A DNA stretch of 64,000 nt from Spirochaetota bacterium (GTDB lineage Bacteria > Spirochaetota > Brevinematia > Brevinematales > Brevinemataceae), in contig JAGUQW010000002.1 in the NCBI GenBank assembly GCA_030154445.1, positions 1 to 64,000 of the forward strand, given 5' to 3'. The notes beneath the pieces are model-generated. The model was not told where the DNA came from, did no database searches, and saw nothing but the letters and a program-made list of their open reading frames with translations. Positions 56,308-61,585 of this stretch are shown one piece after another; the first letter of the stretch is position 1; every line of letters starts with the position of its first letter. The position numbers were made by a program, and so were the translations under genes.

Positions 56308-56337
56308 ATTATATAACATATTCTCTAATTTTGTCAA
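56308..56337 (-). promoter_or_regulatory. Promoter for rpmE
   Basis: On the minus strand TTGACA (56337-56332), 18-bp spacer, TATAAT (56313-56308); fits a highly expressed ribosomal gene. Confidence 0.75.
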
Positions 56338-56369
56338 GTATTTTATCAAGTATATAGAATACATTTTTT

Positions 56370-56408: not shown

Positions 56409-56437
56409 TTTACAAAAGATAATATTTGATCTATAAT
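56409..56437 (+). promoter_or_regulatory. Promoter of the glycosyltransferase operon
   Basis: TTTACA (56409-56414), 17-bp spacer, TATAAT (56432-56437), 46 bases before the first start codon. Confidence 0.65.
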
Positions 56438-56466: not shown

Positions 56467-57603
56467 AAAAGGTTAAAAAAATAATGCAAATTTCAATAAT
56501 TATACCTGTCTATAATACAGAAAAATATTTACCAAAATGTTTAGAATCTGTCATTAATCAAACATATAAAGATATTGAGATAATCGTAGTTAATGATTGT
56601 TCCTCAGGTAATTGTGAAGAGATCGTAAAATCTTATCAAGAACAAGATGATAGAATTATTTATTTGAAACATCATGTTAATAAAGGATTGTTTGGTGCAA
56701 GAGAAACAGGGGTTAAAAAATCTAGCTATGAGTATATATTACATGTGGATAGCGATGACTGGATAGAATTAGATATTTGTGAAAAATTACAAGAATCAAT
56801 AAATTATTCTCCAGATCTTATAGAATTTGGATTTCAAATAATCGATGATTCTTTACAAGAGCCTGATATGCCTAAAATAGATTTATTGCAATGTTCACAA
56901 CAGGAACTATTTACTCGATTTATAACTTTACAAAATGAGCCTTGGTTTGTGTGGCGTTATTTACTCAAAAGAGATATTGCCTTAAAAGTTTATGAAGAAT
57001 TACAGATTAAAGATCATATAATTATTCATGAAGATGTTCTTTTTCTTATTAGCTATAGTTATTATATAACAAAAGCTATTAGTGTAGCTGTTGTAGGATA
57101 TAATTACAATTGGAATAATATGAATAGTGCTATGAGAGAAAAAAGAACAGTAGAAGTTCTTCAAAAAGAGTTAAATGTAACTTCTGTAGTGATATCTCAT
57201 TTGGAGCATTTTTTTGATATTCATCAATTAGATAACAAACTATTATTTCATATAAAATATAATTTATGTAAATCTTTTTTAGGTAACTTACAATTTTATG
57301 AAAGAGATCAAAAAACAATGAATAGTATAATGGATAGTATTTTAAAGCAAAGTATTGATATTTTTGGTAGTGATATCTTCACACTTTTTATCGTGGCAAA
57401 ACCAGAATTATTACCAAATTGGATTAGAACGCTACTAAAAATACAAGATCAATTTTTTCCTAAAGATCAGGCTCTTTTTAAAGTATTAAAAAAGATATAC
57501 TACAAAATCAAAAGGTTAAAAAAATAATGCAAATTTCAATAATTATACCTGTCTATAATACAGAAAAATATTTACCAAAATGTTTAGAATCTGTCATTAA
57601 TCA
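56467..57603 (+). repeat. 94-bp direct repeat at the 5' ends of two glycosyltransferase genes
   Basis: Positions 56467-56560 are identical to 57510-57603: 17 bases before the ATG plus the first 77 coding bases. A second block of 74 identical bases, from ATGATTGTTCC to TTATTTG, lies about 60 bases further inside each copy. The third gene at 58564 carries the same blocks with a few changes. Confidence 0.85.
56484..57527 (+). CDS. Family 2 glycosyltransferase, tandem copy 1
   Basis: A 347-residue GT-A-fold glycosyltransferase. The GT2 domain (about 1-115) has SIIIPVYNTEKYLPKCLESV, VVNDCSSGN (the metal/nucleotide Asp-rich site) and the DXD motif VDSDDW near residue 91. The C-terminal half is helical with KVYEELQIKDHIIIHEDVLF in parts. 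It probably adds a sugar to a lipid-linked surface glycan on the cytoplasmic face of the membrane. The ribosome-binding site is weak (AAAGGTT). Copy 2 starts on the last base of its stop codon (TAATG). Confidence 0.88.
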   Translation: MQISIIIPVYNTEKYLPKCLESVINQTYKDIEIIVVNDCSSGNCEEIVKSYQEQDDRIIYLKHHVNKGLFGARETGVKKSSYEYILHVDSDDWIELDICEKLQESINYSPDLIEFGFQIIDDSLQEPDMPKIDLLQCSQQELFTRFITLQNEPWFVWRYLLKRDIALKVYEELQIKDHIIIHEDVLFLISYSYYITKAISVAVVGYNYNWNNMNSAMREKRTVEVLQKELNVTSVVISHLEHFFDIHQLDNKLLFHIKYNLCKSFLGNLQFYERDQKTMNSIMDSILKQSIDIFGSDIFTLFIVAKPELLPNWIRTLLKIQDQFFPKDQALFKVLKKIYYKIKRLKK

Positions 57604-58555
57604 GACTTATAAAAACATAGAAATTATCATTGTTGATGATTGTTCCTCAGGTAATTGTGAAGAGATCGTAAAATCTTATCAAGAACAAGATGATAGAATT
57701 ATTTATTTGGAACATAATGTTAATAAAGGACTTTATGTAGCTCGAGAAACAGGGGTAAGACATGCTAATGGTACTTATATTACTCATTTAGATAGTGATG
57801 ATTGGTTAGCCTTAGATATTTGTGAATTGGGAATGAAAGCACTCAAAAATAATGAAGATGCTATATTTTTTAATTATATTAGAGTAGAGACGGAAAGGAA
57901 TATTTCTGTAATTTTATATTCTCAAACAATATTAGAAAATCATTTGTTTGATTCTCTAATAGAATTAAAAAGAGACCATTGGAATATGTGGGGTGCTTTC
58001 TACAAAAGAGATTTGGCACTTAAAGTGTATGAAGAATTACAAATAACTCAACATATCGTTATGTCAGAAGATCTCTTGTTTTTTCTTCCTTTTTCTTATT
58101 ATTGTAAAAATGCTGTCAGTATTTCACCTATAGGATATTATTATACCTGTACTAACGAGAGTAGTGCTACCAAAACTGTTCCTACTGTAGAATCTTTGAC
58201 AAATGATTTAGAAGTTTATCAATTTGTCATGCAAACTCATAAATGTTTTTGTGAAAAACATAAAATATATACTAAGAAGTTGTATAAAATTCAACAAAAA
58301 TTATGTCAATTTCATTTAGAGCAAATGACAATTCTTCAAGAAGATAAATTAGCAATGGATCAATTGTTACCAAAAACAGTAGAAGTTTTTGGTGGAGATA
58401 CCGTAGCTTCTTTTATATATGATGTTTCTATGACTCCTAATATGATTTTTACACAAAGAAAATTATATAAAAAAATTGATAATTTTTTTATTAAAATACA
58501 GAATCATTTTTGTTTTGTATTTCTAAAAAAATTATATCAAATAATTAAAAAATAG
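57527..58555 (+). CDS. Family 2 glycosyltransferase, tandem copy 2
   Basis: A 342-residue paralogue with a nearly identical first 70 residues to copy 1 and more diverged C-terminal half. GT2 motifs: VDDCSSGN near residue 36 and LDSDDWLALD near residue 91. The segment LALKVYEELQITQHIVMSEDLLFF shows that the helical half is also homologous. The divergence after about residue 100 suggests a different acceptor or donor. Its promoter-proximal sequence is copied within the end of copy 1, evidence of tandem duplication. Confidence 0.88.
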   Translation: MQISIIIPVYNTEKYLPKCLESVINQTYKNIEIIIVDDCSSGNCEEIVKSYQEQDDRIIYLEHNVNKGLYVARETGVRHANGTYITHLDSDDWLALDICELGMKALKNNEDAIFFNYIRVETERNISVILYSQTILENHLFDSLIELKRDHWNMWGAFYKRDLALKVYEELQITQHIVMSEDLLFFLPFSYYCKNAVSISPIGYYYTCTNESSATKTVPTVESLTNDLEVYQFVMQTHKCFCEKHKIYTKKLYKIQQKLCQFHLEQMTILQEDKLAMDQLLPKTVEVFGGDTVASFIYDVSMTPNMIFTQRKLYKKIDNFFIKIQNHFCFVFLKKLYQIIKK

Positions 58556-58563
58556 GACTTATT

Positions 58564-59616
58564 GTGAAAATTTCAATAATTATACCTGTCTATAATACAG
58601 AAAAATATTTACCAAAATGTTTGGAATCTGTCATTAATCAAACATATAAAGATATAGAAATTATTGTTGTTGATGATTGTTCCTTAGGTAATTGTGAAGA
58701 GATCGTAAAATCTTATCAAGAACAAGATGATAGAATTGTTTATTTGAAACATAATGTTAATAAAGGACTTTATGCAGCTCGAGAAACAGGGATAAGACAT
58801 GCTAATGGTAGTTATGTTATTCATTTAGATAGTGATGATTGGTTAGGGTTGGAATTAGCTCAGAAGATCAATGATGCGTCTTCACAAGATGCAGATCTTT
58901 TTATTTATGATACGATAAGTGTTCGAGCTCAAGGTAAAGAAAAAGCAATATGGACGAATAAAGGTGCTAATAATTTTGATAATACAACTTTATTTACAGC
59001 TCTATGTTCTCGTTCGTTTAGCTCTTGGGCTACTTGTGGTAAAGTATTCAAACGAACTGTAGTATTGGATATTTATAACAAAATTAATATAAATTCTCAT
59101 CTTACAATGGCAGAAGATTTATTATTTTTCTTTTATTATGCATATTTTTGTAAAAATGCTGTTCATATTCCTTATGATGGGTATTATTATAATTTGACCA
59201 ACATTAGTGTGAATAGAATTTCTTACACATTAGAAAAATCTCAATCACATTTGCAAAATTTGCATATTGTTATCGAGCGAATAAAATCTTTGATGCAAGA
59301 CCAAGATATTAATTTTTCTGTATACAAACCTATTATACAAGAATTAGCACAGAGTTATTTTATTAGATTAAATGAGTTGTCGATAAATGATAAAAAAACA
59401 ATTTTCACACTGTTAGTTGATGTGTTTGGAACAGAAATTTTAGTAGATTATATTTCGACACAAGCTCAATTTAGAGATGACAAAATCAGAGTAACTAGTG
59501 ATCAATTAATAACAAAGATATTTCCTAAAAATTCTAAACAATATAATATATTAAGAATGATAATATTACAAATGTACAATATATTTCACTATATATTAGA
59601 TAGAGATAAAAAATGA
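58564..59616 (+). CDS. Family 2 glycosyltransferase, tandem copy 3
   Basis: A 350-residue member of the same set. The first 70 residues match the other copies with a few substitutions (SLGNCEE for SSGNCEE), and residues about 55-95 match copy 2 best (NKGLYAARETGIRHANGSY, LDSDDWLGLE). The C-terminal half is the most diverged, with TMAEDLLFFF conserved. The start is a GTG at the position equivalent to the ATG of the other copies. Its TGA overlaps the ATG of the HD-domain gene. Confidence 0.88.
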   Translation: MKISIIIPVYNTEKYLPKCLESVINQTYKDIEIIVVDDCSLGNCEEIVKSYQEQDDRIVYLKHNVNKGLYAARETGIRHANGSYVIHLDSDDWLGLELAQKINDASSQDADLFIYDTISVRAQGKEKAIWTNKGANNFDNTTLFTALCSRSFSSWATCGKVFKRTVVLDIYNKININSHLTMAEDLLFFFYYAYFCKNAVHIPYDGYYYNLTNISVNRISYTLEKSQSHLQNLHIVIERIKSLMQDQDINFSVYKPIIQELAQSYFIRLNELSINDKKTIFTLLVDVFGTEILVDYISTQAQFRDDKIRVTSDQLITKIFPKNSKQYNILRMIILQMYNIFHYILDRDKK

Positions 59617-60236
59617 CAAAAATACAACAATATCAACAATTATTAATACCAAATATGGTATATTCTCCAGAATTATTAATAACTTTATTAGAACAAGTTC
59701 TTTCTGAAAAAAGATATGCACATGTGATAAGAGTATTAAATACTGCAAAAATATTAGCGAATAAATTTCAAGTTTCTAAAAAAGAACAAGATCAGATTAT
59801 TCAAGCAGTATTATTTCATGATCTTGCAAAGGGAATGAAAGATGAAGAGCTGTTTGAATATGCGGAAATATACTCTATCTATTTAGGAGATGTACCTGCT
59901 CCTATTTATCATGCTATTGTTGGAGCTTGGATGATGGAATATTTTTTTGATATTAATGATAAAAAAGTATTAGAAGCTGTTTATTATCATACAACAGGAT
60001 ATATTAATTTTTTAACTAATCAAATTGGAGCGATTTTGTTTATAGCAGATTATTTAGAGCCAGCGCGTTCTTTTGAAAAATTACATATAGAAATTCATAT
60101 TCCTAGTAATATAAAATTGGCATTACTAGAAATAGTAAAAGATAAAATATCTTATGTTATTCAAAGAAATAGAGTAATTGATTGTAAAAGTGTAACTTTT
60201 TATCATGGTTTGTTAAAAGAACAAGGAGATAATTAA
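59613..60236 (+). CDS. YqeK-like HD-domain phosphohydrolase
   Basis: A 207-residue cytoplasmic HD protein of the YqeK type, which hydrolyses diadenosine tetraphosphate symmetrically to ADP. Metal ligands and motifs: His37 (RYAHVIRV), His69-Asp70 with Lys73 (LFHDLAKG), His100 (IYHAIVG), His126 (YYHTTG) and Asp146 (IADYLEPAR). YqeK usually sits with nadD and rsfS; here it overlaps the third glycosyltransferase (ATGA) and the next membrane-protein gene (TAATG), so it is translated with a glycan cluster. A nucleotide by-product of sugar transfer is a possible substrate, as inference. Confidence 0.85.
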   Translation: MTKIQQYQQLLIPNMVYSPELLITLLEQVLSEKRYAHVIRVLNTAKILANKFQVSKKEQDQIIQAVLFHDLAKGMKDEELFEYAEIYSIYLGDVPAPIYHAIVGAWMMEYFFDINDKKVLEAVYYHTTGYINFLTNQIGAILFIADYLEPARSFEKLHIEIHIPSNIKLALLEIVKDKISYVIQRNRVIDCKSVTFYHGLLKEQGDN

Positions 60237-61585
60237 TGATGAAATACTTAAAACTATCTAAGTTTGAATTTATCAATATTGGTATTTTCACTCTTTTAAT
60301 ATTTATATTAGGATTGATTTTACCTATTTTTTATGGAGATGATATCAATTATGCTATAGATCAAGGTTCTTTTATTGTACAGCAAATTCAAGAGTACAAA
60401 ACATGGCATGGTCGATTTCTGACTCATATTTGGGTTAGAATAATCTTACAATATCCTTATACTTCAGATCTACTAATAAGTTTTTTTGTAGCATTATTTT
60501 TTTATGCTTCATGGAAATCTATCAATCCTCATCATACTGCTTCAGAAAAAAATAATCAAAGAGTGCTTTTAGTTGTTCTTTGTTTTGCTTTAATTTTATT
60601 TTTTACACATGGATTTTGGATTGCTATGCTAAGAGTAACACATTTTCTAAGTTATCGTTTTACGGTAGCACTAGTTTTATTATTTTTAATACCTTATTTA
60701 AAAATATTTGCCAATAAGGAAGACAAACCTTCTTTAAAAATATTTATTCCTCTGTCTTTTTTAGCGGGAGCAACGCATGAACAAGTCGTGATTGTTATTC
60801 CATTATTATTAATGATGGGAATAATAGGGAAATTTTTAAAGAAAAATATACCTTTATGGTATTGGCTAGGTATCATTGTTTTTGTTATAGGTTGTGCTAC
60901 TGTATTTTTATCACCTGCAGGATTGTCAGAAGAAAAAATTATAACATATGGAAATGCATTAGAATGGGATTTTTTTGGACAAACTCTAAATTGGTTAGAG
61001 CTAGGCTGGAAACGATATTTTTATAGTTTAATTAAAGTATTGTCAATATGGATTCCTCATAGTATAGGATTTATGATTTTTTTTATCATCTTATTGATAT
61101 TATCAATTAAAAAATTAAATTCTTTCTCTTATGAATTAGTTCCTTCAATTTTTTTATTTTTATTAAGTCAGGCTATTATTTTAGTAATGATGTTTTCTCC
61201 AAGATTCACATCAGGTCCTATGGCTTTAGGTAGTGATCTTATAGTGATATCGTGTATATCACTACTATCTTCTTATTGGAAAATTATAAAATTTGATGTA
61301 CGAACAAAAGAAAAATTAATTATGAAAATAGTATATAGTATTACTTTTATTACATGGATTTTACAGATTCCTCCAGTTTTATCATATAGAGTTGAATATA
61401 ATCATATGATTAAAATAGTTGGACAAGCTATAAAAAAAGGTGATTCAGAAATTATAATACCAAAATTAAAGAGGCAGGGAATAAAAACACTTTTTGGTTA
61501 TATTAGAATTATTCACCCACCAGAGGTAAACACTCTTATAAAATATAAGTATCCTAATACAACAATTACTATTATAGAAAAATAA
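60236..61585 (+). CDS. Polytopic membrane protein (DUF6056-like)
   Basis: A 449-residue inner-membrane protein with about ten hydrophobic segments. After the first helix, FYGDDINYAIDQG and KTWHGRFLTHIW resemble the conserved acidic and 'GRF' elements of DUF6056-type and other GT-C-like membrane proteins that use lipid-linked sugars; THEQVVIVIP near residue 180 is also typical. A role as glycosyltransferase or flippase-associated protein in the same glycan pathway is inferred from the operon. The first of two adjacent ATGs is best spaced from AAGGAG. It ends the operon at a terminator. Confidence 0.7.
   Translation: MMKYLKLSKFEFINIGIFTLLIFILGLILPIFYGDDINYAIDQGSFIVQQIQEYKTWHGRFLTHIWVRIILQYPYTSDLLISFFVALFFYASWKSINPHHTASEKNNQRVLLVVLCFALILFFTHGFWIAMLRVTHFLSYRFTVALVLLFLIPYLKIFANKEDKPSLKIFIPLSFLAGATHEQVVIVIPLLLMMGIIGKFLKKNIPLWYWLGIIVFVIGCATVFLSPAGLSEEKIITYGNALEWDFFGQTLNWLELGWKRYFYSLIKVLSIWIPHSIGFMIFFIILLILSIKKLNSFSYELVPSIFLFLLSQAIILVMMFSPRFTSGPMALGSDLIVISCISLLSSYWKIIKFDVRTKEKLIMKIVYSITFITWILQIPPVLSYRVEYNHMIKIVGQAIKKGDSEIIIPKLKRQGIKTLFGYIRIIHPPEVNTLIKYKYPNTTITIIEK

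What the first reader, a model, noticed from the sequence alone, without database searches (positions are those of the whole stretch)
56467..59616. Three tandem GT2 genes with copied 5' ends and diverging 3' halves
Copies 1 and 2 share a perfect 94-bp block (17 bases upstream plus the first 77 coding bases) and a second 74-bp perfect block, while the later parts differ. The third copy carries the same blocks with few changes. Identity including synonymous positions is more than function needs. This suggests recent duplication or ongoing gene conversion that keeps the donor-binding half constant while the acceptor half diverges, so recombination could create hybrid enzymes and vary a surface glycan.
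Basis: partly seen in the sequence, partly recalled or inferred. Interest (0 to 1): 0.55.

Follow-up and report, generated by a model that had tools for sequence, protein, structure and literature searches.

The report
Tandem sugar-transferase genes sharing copied front ends
Three neighbouring sugar-transferase genes in a Brevinema spirochaete have had their front ends overwritten by one another while keeping old, separate back halves; the copying is well supported, but the pattern resembles one already described in Helicobacter pylori and no shuffling between strains was shown.

Summary
Genes g1 (56484-57527), g2 (57527-58555) and g3 (58564-59616) are intact GT2 glycosyltransferase genes; g1 and g2 share exact blocks of 94 and 74 bp at the stated places. 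The first 94 codons of g2 and g3 differ at about 9% of synonymous sites, while their tails are near saturation.

A congener (uncultured Brevinema sp., L035) supplies the decisive comparison. The g2 and g3 tails have their closest relatives in the congener (72% and 76% amino-acid identity), so the tails separated before the species did. Over codons 1-94, g2 matches its neighbour g3 against its own orthologue at 51 sites to 7; over codons 101-282 the ratio is 36 to 183, and it flips at codon 94/95. This is short-tract gene conversion of the 5' ends, not recent whole-gene duplication and not protein constraint. The g2/g3 tract covers the nucleotide-sugar-binding half of the predicted GT-A fold and stops just after the DSDDW motif.

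Two other Brevinemataceae genomes hold a single gene (g3) here. Active shuffling of a surface glycan is untested; purifying selection on the tails argues against fast variation. Closest precedent: H. pylori HP1105 tandem alleles.

The parts
56484..57527 (+). g1, GT2 glycosyltransferase (347 aa); tail has no orthologue found in congener
   Evidence: Pfam Glycos_transf_2 E=2.8e-34; tail search
57527..58555 (+). g2, GT2 glycosyltransferase (342 aa); orthologue in congener (72% aa)
   Evidence: E=8.8e-37
58564..59616 (+). g3, GT2 glycosyltransferase (350 aa, GTG start); the single GT2 at this locus in two other Brevinemataceae genomes
   Evidence: E=9.3e-35
56467..56560 (+). 94-bp exact block, copy in g1 (17 nt upstream + 77 coding nt)
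57510..57603 (+). 94-bp exact block, copy in g2 (its first 17 nt lie in the end of g1)
56593..56666 (+). 74-bp exact block, copy in g1
57636..57709 (+). 74-bp exact block, copy in g2
58568..58622 (+). 55-bp run in g3 identical to g1 and g2
58686..58737 (+). 52-bp run in g3 identical to g1 and g2
57527..57808 (+). homogenised codons 1-94 of g2 (shared history with g3)
   Evidence: site-pattern test 51:7
58564..58845 (+). homogenised codons 1-94 of g3
56766..57524 (+). divergent tail of g1 (from codon 95)
57809..58552 (+). divergent tail of g2 (orthologous across species)
58846..59613 (+). divergent tail of g3 (orthologous across species)
59613..60236 (+). HD-domain YqeK-like hydrolase, overlaps end of g3; same operon by position
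   Evidence: TIGR00488 93.1 bits, cut-off 70.15
60236..61585 (+). DUF6056 protein, last gene of the run; not found by tblastn on the congener stretch searched
   Evidence: PF19528 E=8.1e-36
56409..56437 (+). promoter-like site upstream of g1 (11 of 12 matches); consensus match only
   Evidence: 54 sites found in the region, 49.4 expected by shuffling

Best explanation
g1-g2-g3 are three old, probably functionally distinct GT2 paralogues in one operon-like run. Their 5' ends (first ~60-94 codons, the nucleotide-sugar-binding half) have been repeatedly overwritten by short non-reciprocal exchanges between the copies (ectopic gene conversion) since this species split from its congener. Shown: the 5' ends of g2 and g3 share a more recent ancestor than the species split, the tails do not, and the switch is at codon 94/95; g1 shares two shorter patches. 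Inferred: RecA-type homologous recombination does the copying, tracts stop where homology runs out and/or where overwriting the acceptor half would destroy a needed specificity, and the three enzymes use the same or similar sugar donors on different acceptors.
For: Site patterns against the congener's g2 orthologue: codons 37-94, g2 agrees with g3 against the orthologue 42 times and with the orthologue against g3 2 times; codons 95-100, 0 against 9; codons 101-282, 36 against 183 (p=7e-25). For g1/g2: codons 37-61, 19 against 0; codons 62-94, 18 against 20; codons 101-282, 51 against 174. Synonymous change over codons 1-94 is 5.0 of 55.8 sites for g2/g3 but 27.2 of 56.0 for g2/orthologue (Fisher p=6e-6). 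Eight flanking genes give dS 0.64-1.15 between the same two genomes, so g2/g3 5' ends are far younger than the split. The tail tree groups g2 with its orthologue (95/93) and g3 with its orthologue (92/93), and rejects a g1+g2+g3 clade (p-AU 1e-50). GENECONV-like permutation on third positions: g2/g3 run of 30 matching sites, codons 35-94, p=1e-4; g1/g3 p=1e-4; g1/g2 p=0.01. g3 is a mosaic of g1-like and g2-like sites at codons 26-36. The model of g2 (pLDDT 88) puts b1-a1-b2-a2-b3-a3-b4 plus DSDDW in residues 1-93.
Against: The 5' tree alone (282 columns) is unresolved: its best topology puts g2 beside the congener orthologue (support 47/46) and a g1+g2+g3 clade is merely not rejected (p-AU 0.276, lnL 4.79 lower). 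So the case rests on distances and site patterns. For g1 over the whole of codons 1-94 the synonymous contrast is not significant (18.2/54.5 against 27.2/56.0, p=0.13; codons 1-74 p=0.015). Codons 1-36 alone do not favour either history (9:5, p=0.42). Permutation p values on fully silent sites are only 0.010-0.032 for the paralogue pairs, uncorrected. The congener is one fragmentary MAG (79% complete) and lacks the 5' half of its g3.
Confidence: 0.88

Rival explanations
1. Recent tandem duplication of one gene followed by very fast divergence of the 3' halves (positive selection on the acceptor part).
For: One copy (g3) at this locus in two of the three other Brevinemataceae genomes examined, against three here, so copy number differs. 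g1 has no orthologue found in the congener.
Against: g2 and g3 tails each have their own orthologue in the congener at 72% and 76% amino-acid identity while only 27-29% alike to each other. A g1+g2+g3 tail clade is rejected. Tails are under purifying selection between species.
Confidence: 0.05
2. Functional constraint: the 5' DNA is kept alike by selection on the protein's donor site or on mRNA structure, with no exchange.
For: GT2 N-termini are conserved: median within-locus identity over 191 pairs is 56% (5') against 44% (3'). The thrS-adjacent single-copy GT2 keeps 82% amino-acid identity in its first 94 codons between species and 39% in its tail.
Against: The same 5' segment differs between g2 and its orthologue at about half of synonymous sites (pS 0.53, codons 1-74) while g2/g3 differ at 0.11. 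Any constraint would act on both comparisons.
Confidence: 0.03
3. Active diversification system: shared 5' ends are selected as recombination handles so that acceptor halves can be shuffled or swapped and a surface glycan varied within a population.
For: Gene content at the locus differs between congeners: a GT2+GT4 fusion gene stands in the first GT2 place after L31 in the congener, and DUF6056 was not found there. GT content beside rpsD also differs. Two of the 36 contig ends of this assembly (18 contigs) cut GT2 genes in or just after the N-terminal part.
Against: No hybrid or missing copy was seen; no strains or long reads to look in. Tails of g2 and g3 are stable orthologues under purifying selection. 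Three intact frames, no silent cassettes, no simple-repeat switch.
Confidence: 0.12
4. Assembly artefact: reads of different copies were merged at the 5' ends.
For: Blocks of 94 and 74 bp can confuse short-read assembly; the assembly method is unknown.
Against: The three 5' ends carry distinct, linked differences. The run lies inside a 318-kb contig, and tails and flanks fit the order seen on the congener's contigs.
Confidence: 0.03

Closest known systems
Helicobacter pylori HP1105 (beta-1,3-GlcNAc transferase) alleles, PMC6892558 (section 12 read)
   Same: Tandem copies of one glycosyltransferase; N-terminal part highly conserved; alleles told apart by the C-terminal half; copy number varies between strains; N/C hybrids known but rare.
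   Different: In H. pylori many strains show the variation and the pathway product is known. Here there is one genome per species, three copies, no known product, and the evidence is synonymous-site history.
Helicobacter pylori JHP0562/JHP0563 locus, PMC6892558 (section 12 read)
   Same: Neighbouring glycosyltransferases with N and C modules; intragenomic recombination proposed to diversify a surface glycan.
   Different: There the N modules also differ, and frameshifts at a homopolymeric tract occur. No such tract was found in g1-g3.
Neisseria lgtABCDE locus (relatedness of its genes recalled; passages of PMC10327513 seen mention the locus and phase variation, not exchange between its genes)
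   Same: Tandem glycosyltransferase genes for a surface glycan, with related members (recalled).
   Different: Switching there is by phase variation; no repeat of that kind seen here.
pilE/pilS gene conversion in Neisseria (passages of PMC10327513, and PMC11130364)
   Same: Non-reciprocal copying between homologous genes, with conserved parts serving recombination.
   Different: There silent copies overwrite one expressed locus and the variable part is what moves. Here three intact genes exchange the constant part.

Membership tests
Glycosyltransferase family 2 (GT-A fold) | Pfam Glycos_transf_2 above curated cut-off | tested here: met
   g1 118.9, g2 127.1, g3 120.5 bits, cut-off 23.3
Glycosyltransferase family 2 (GT-A fold) | DxD motif and a conserved downstream acidic pair | tested here: met
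   D89, D91, D92 and D182 invariant, E181 in at least 90%, in 37 sequences; present in g1-g3. Catalytic roles are recalled, not tested.
Glycosyltransferase family 2 (GT-A fold) | GT-A fold with solved relatives | tested here: met
   Model pLDDT 88; Foldseek best 5hea_A E=9.6e-18; also K4 chondroitin polymerase, RmlT, TarS, TarP
Ectopic gene conversion / concerted evolution between paralogues | Paralogous segments within a genome closer to each other than to their orthologues at synonymous sites | tested here: met
   g2/g3 codons 1-94: 5.0/55.8 against 27.2/56.0, p=6e-6
Ectopic gene conversion / concerted evolution between paralogues | Different history in the rest of the same genes, with defined tract ends | tested here: met
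   switch at codon 94/95; tail tree
Ectopic gene conversion / concerted evolution between paralogues | 5' tree groups the paralogues with support | tested here: inconclusive
   282 columns, unresolved; clade not rejected, p-AU 0.276
N-constant/C-variable tandem GT locus (H. pylori HP1105 type) | Tandem copies, conserved N-terminal half, divergent C-terminal half | tested here: met
N-constant/C-variable tandem GT locus (H. pylori HP1105 type) | Copy number and allele set vary between strains of one species | not testable with these tools
   one genome per species; between species the content does differ
Antigenic variation with silent cassettes (pilS type) | Incomplete silent donor copies | tested here: not met
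   all three reading frames intact with start codons and conserved motifs
Phase-variable glycosyltransferases | Long homopolymer or simple repeat in or before the gene | tested here: not met
   no run of 8 or more A/T or 6 or more G/C in g1-g3; tandem arrays touching a GT gene are 2.0 copies of 12 bp in g1 and about 3 copies of 8 bp at the g3 stop; also 2.2 copies of 12 bp at 56328-56353, upstream

The most novel reading that the evidence does not exclude
In Brevinema, and perhaps other bacteria with tandem GT2 genes, the donor-binding 5' third of GT2 genes serves as a constant recombination handle. Exchange at this handle keeps the donor half uniform and lets acceptor halves, and whole GT units, be gained, lost or re-paired at glycan loci, as a modular diversification system for surface sugars. 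Hints beyond this array: weaker examples of the same 5'-alike/3'-different pattern in L030, L036 (Brachyspira) and L101 (Endomicrobium), different GT content at the xseA and rpsD loci in congeners, and contig ends falling in the N-terminal part of GT2 genes.
Probability: 0.13. Interest if true: 0.5.

Novelty: new member of a known kind. Interest (0 to 1): 0.33.

Why it matters
It is a clean case of gene conversion confined to one structural half of an enzyme: the tract in g2/g3 stops just after the DSDDW motif. If general, trees or function transfer based on the N-terminal Glycos_transf_2 domain can mislead, because that half does not share the history of the acceptor half. It also names a locus where strain comparison could test whether a little-studied spirochaete varies its surface glycan by recombination.

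Tried and rejected
Whole-gene recent duplication and pure constraint were tested against the congener and rejected. A 5' tree was built hoping for a clean g1+g2+g3 clade; it was unresolved and is reported as such (three GT2 rows, G003_C3a, G003_C3b and G002_C8, were left out of both trees, and the congener's g3, which has no 5' half, out of the 5' tree). Silent-cassette and phase-variation models were checked and not met. No RNA family match in the window. The 60 bases upstream of g1, g2 and g3 were compared: only the last 17 of g1/g2 are identical, the rest is AT-rich and was not informative. The direction of conversion (donor gene) could not be settled: all three 5' ends are about equally far from the G002 g3 orthologue (71-73% nucleotide identity), and g2 and g3 equally far from the congener's g2 (78-79%; g1 73%). 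The congener's own g3 5' half is missing from its assembly, so whether conversion also acts there is unknown; its fusion gene and g2 do not show it (5' dS 0.82). Literature: in the open-access library showed in their listings no paper on this array or on GT gene conversion in Brevinema; subscription journals are mostly not held. PMC8116685 (Brachyspira recombination) was searched by terms and held no occurrence of 'glycosyltransferase' or 'gene conversion'.
Full report
WHAT IS THERE. The window is bases 1-64000 of contig C2 of a 1.50-Mb, 18-contig genome. The genus is Brevinema (Spirochaetota): contig C2 of same-genus genome G001 has the length (24162 bp) and the match of the named record CAMRBT010000002.1, 'uncultured Brevinema sp.'. 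At 56484-59616 lie three GT2 glycosyltransferase genes on the + strand, g1, g2 and g3, followed by a YqeK-like HD hydrolase and a DUF6056 protein. Neighbouring genes overlap by one to four bases or lie 8 bases apart, so they look like one operon. A promoter-like site precedes g1, but such sites are hardly commoner in the region than in shuffles. Divergently upstream lie ribosomal protein L31 and xseA.

THE OBSERVATION. The 94-bp and 74-bp exact blocks are at the stated coordinates. Identity over codons 1-94 is 86% (g1/g2), 85% (g1/g3) and 94% (g2/g3), and 55%, 46% and 49% over the tails. Among 191 distinct within-locus pairs of GT2-like genes (225 distinct ORFs kept of 239 found, in 104 loci, 63 of which gave pairs), the three window pairs are the top three for 5' identity; only 4 of 191 have 5' identity at or above 85% with 3' identity at or below 60%, the fourth being in L030. 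The medians are 56% (5') and 44% (3'), so N-terminal conservation is usual but this degree is not. That set is biased: most loci were fetched for similarity to these proteins.

WHY IT IS CONVERSION. The congener G001 keeps the same neighbourhood, on two contigs: ROK kinase, methyltransferase, xseA and L31, then a 769-aa GT2+GT4 fusion gene and a g2 orthologue cut by the contig end; and on another contig the 3' half of a g3 orthologue, then HD, lipoprotein, TPR, CheY and CheX genes. Between the species, g2 codons 95-282 are 72% identical in amino acids and the g3 tail 76%, while g2 and g3 tails are 27-29% alike. The tails are therefore older than the species. In codons 1-94 the relation is reversed. 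Counting sites, g2 sides with g3 against its own orthologue 51:7 in codons 1-94, and 36:183 in codons 101-282; codons 95-100 give 0:9. The change is thus located within a few codons. Synonymous differences are 5.0 of 55.8 sites for g2/g3 and 27.2 of 56.0 for g2/orthologue (p=6e-6), against dS 0.64-1.15 for eight flanking genes between the same genomes. Protein or mRNA constraint cannot explain this, because it would act on the orthologue too.

g1 IS LESS COMPLETE. g1 and g2 are identical over codons 1-25 and nearly so over 37-61 (19:0 sites), then the signal is lost (62-94, 18:20). Over all of codons 1-94 the synonymous contrast for g1/g2 is not significant (p=0.13); over 1-74 it is (p=0.015). 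Between codons 26 and 36 g3 matches g1 first and g2 afterwards. I infer that at least two, probably more, separate short exchanges are needed.

WEAK POINTS. The 5' tree is unresolved (282 columns). Its best topology has g2 beside the congener orthologue with support 47/46; holding g1, g2 and g3 together costs 4.79 log units, p-AU 0.276. On the tails the same clade is rejected (p about 1e-50), with g2+orthologue at 95/93 and g3+orthologue at 92/93. Permutation tests in the style of GENECONV on third positions give p=1e-4 (g2/g3, codons 35-94; g1/g3, codons 40-65) and 0.01 (g1/g2); on sites silent in all four sequences 0.017, 0.032 and 0.010, not corrected for testing several pairs and site sets.

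HOW THE LOCUS GREW. Genomes G002 (same genus) and G003 (same family) have a single GT2 gene between L31 and the HD gene: an orthologue of g3, 54% and 42% identical. g3 is thus the likely resident of the locus; g1, g2 and the congener's fusion gene were added upstream of it, or lost in the others. Yet the g2 tail is further from the g3 tail (27%) than the G002 g3 tail is (48%), so g1 and g2 are old paralogues or arrivals, not fresh copies. In the tail tree g1 stands beside g2 (86/92).

STRUCTURE. The AlphaFold model of g2 from 37 sequences has pLDDT 88 and pTM 0.83. Residues 1-93 hold b1-a1-b2-a2-b3-a3-b4 and the DSDDW motif, the nucleotide-sugar-binding half of a GT-A fold (role assigned from general knowledge of GT2 enzymes); the divergent rest carries the remaining strands, the conserved E181-D182 pair and a helical C-terminal part. 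Foldseek's matches include 5hea (best), RmlT, the K4 chondroitin polymerase, a Leptospira glycosyltransferase, TarS and TarP. Donor and acceptor of g1-g3 remain unknown: sequence matches to solved structures are partial, and no NCBIfam model reaches its cut-off for them.

MECHANISM. Most likely, homologous recombination between the copies occasionally copies a stretch of a few dozen to about 280 bp from one to another. It can start only where the copies are alike, so the 5' ends keep themselves alike while the tails, already diverged, stay out of reach; conversions reaching the acceptor half would also destroy a specificity that selection maintains (dN/dS about 0.26 and 0.14 in the tails). Shown: the copying, its place and its relative age. 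Inferred: recombination machinery, direction, and cause of the stops. I put the conversion reading at 0.88 and active glycan diversification built on it at about 0.12.

KNOWN RELATIVES. The closest described case is H. pylori HP1105: tandem copies, conserved N-terminal half, alleles defined by the C-terminal half, rare N/C hybrids (PMC6892558, section 12 read). JHP0562/JHP0563 in the same paper is a second precedent. What is new here is the organism, the three-copy array and a synonymous-site demonstration with a tract end at a domain edge. Hence: new member of a known kind, moderate interest.

Noticed in passing
G000 C11 about 113147-114200 (L024 7148 on) and G001 C138 (L032 2035-3054): A single-copy GT2 gene beside thrS in both congeners has an N-terminal part 82% and a last stretch of ~30 residues 77% identical, but much of the middle only 13-47% per block of about 30 residues: the constant-ends, divergent-middle pattern without tandem copies; either fast acceptor-domain evolution or a past swap.
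   Followed up: partly
G000 C13:1-110 (L132), G000 C17:1-2023 (L130), G001 C107:2 on (L131), G002 C74:1 on (L033): Contig ends cut GT2 genes in or just after the N-terminal third (about codons 31-105) in three Brevinema assemblies, which may mean more shared 5' ends than the assemblies show; not tested for significance.
   Followed up: partly
L130 2-3639 and L131 2-1801: Upstream of the gene I take for rpsD the two congeners carry different glycosyltransferases: a GT2+GT4-like fusion and another putative glycosyltransferase in the window's genome, a plain GT2 gene in G001 (names by eye).
   Followed up: no
L025 864-3173 (G001 C2): A 769-aa GT2+GT4 fusion gene occupies the first GT2 place after L31 in the congener; no close counterpart in the window's genome, the best match being the truncated fusion on C17 at 27%.
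   Followed up: partly
L030 3866-10561, L036 6766-9155, L101 716-7074: Weaker 5'-alike/3'-different tandem GT2 genes in another spirochaete (unnamed G026), a Brachyspira MAG and an Endomicrobium MAG; orthologue tests for conversion were not done.
   Followed up: no
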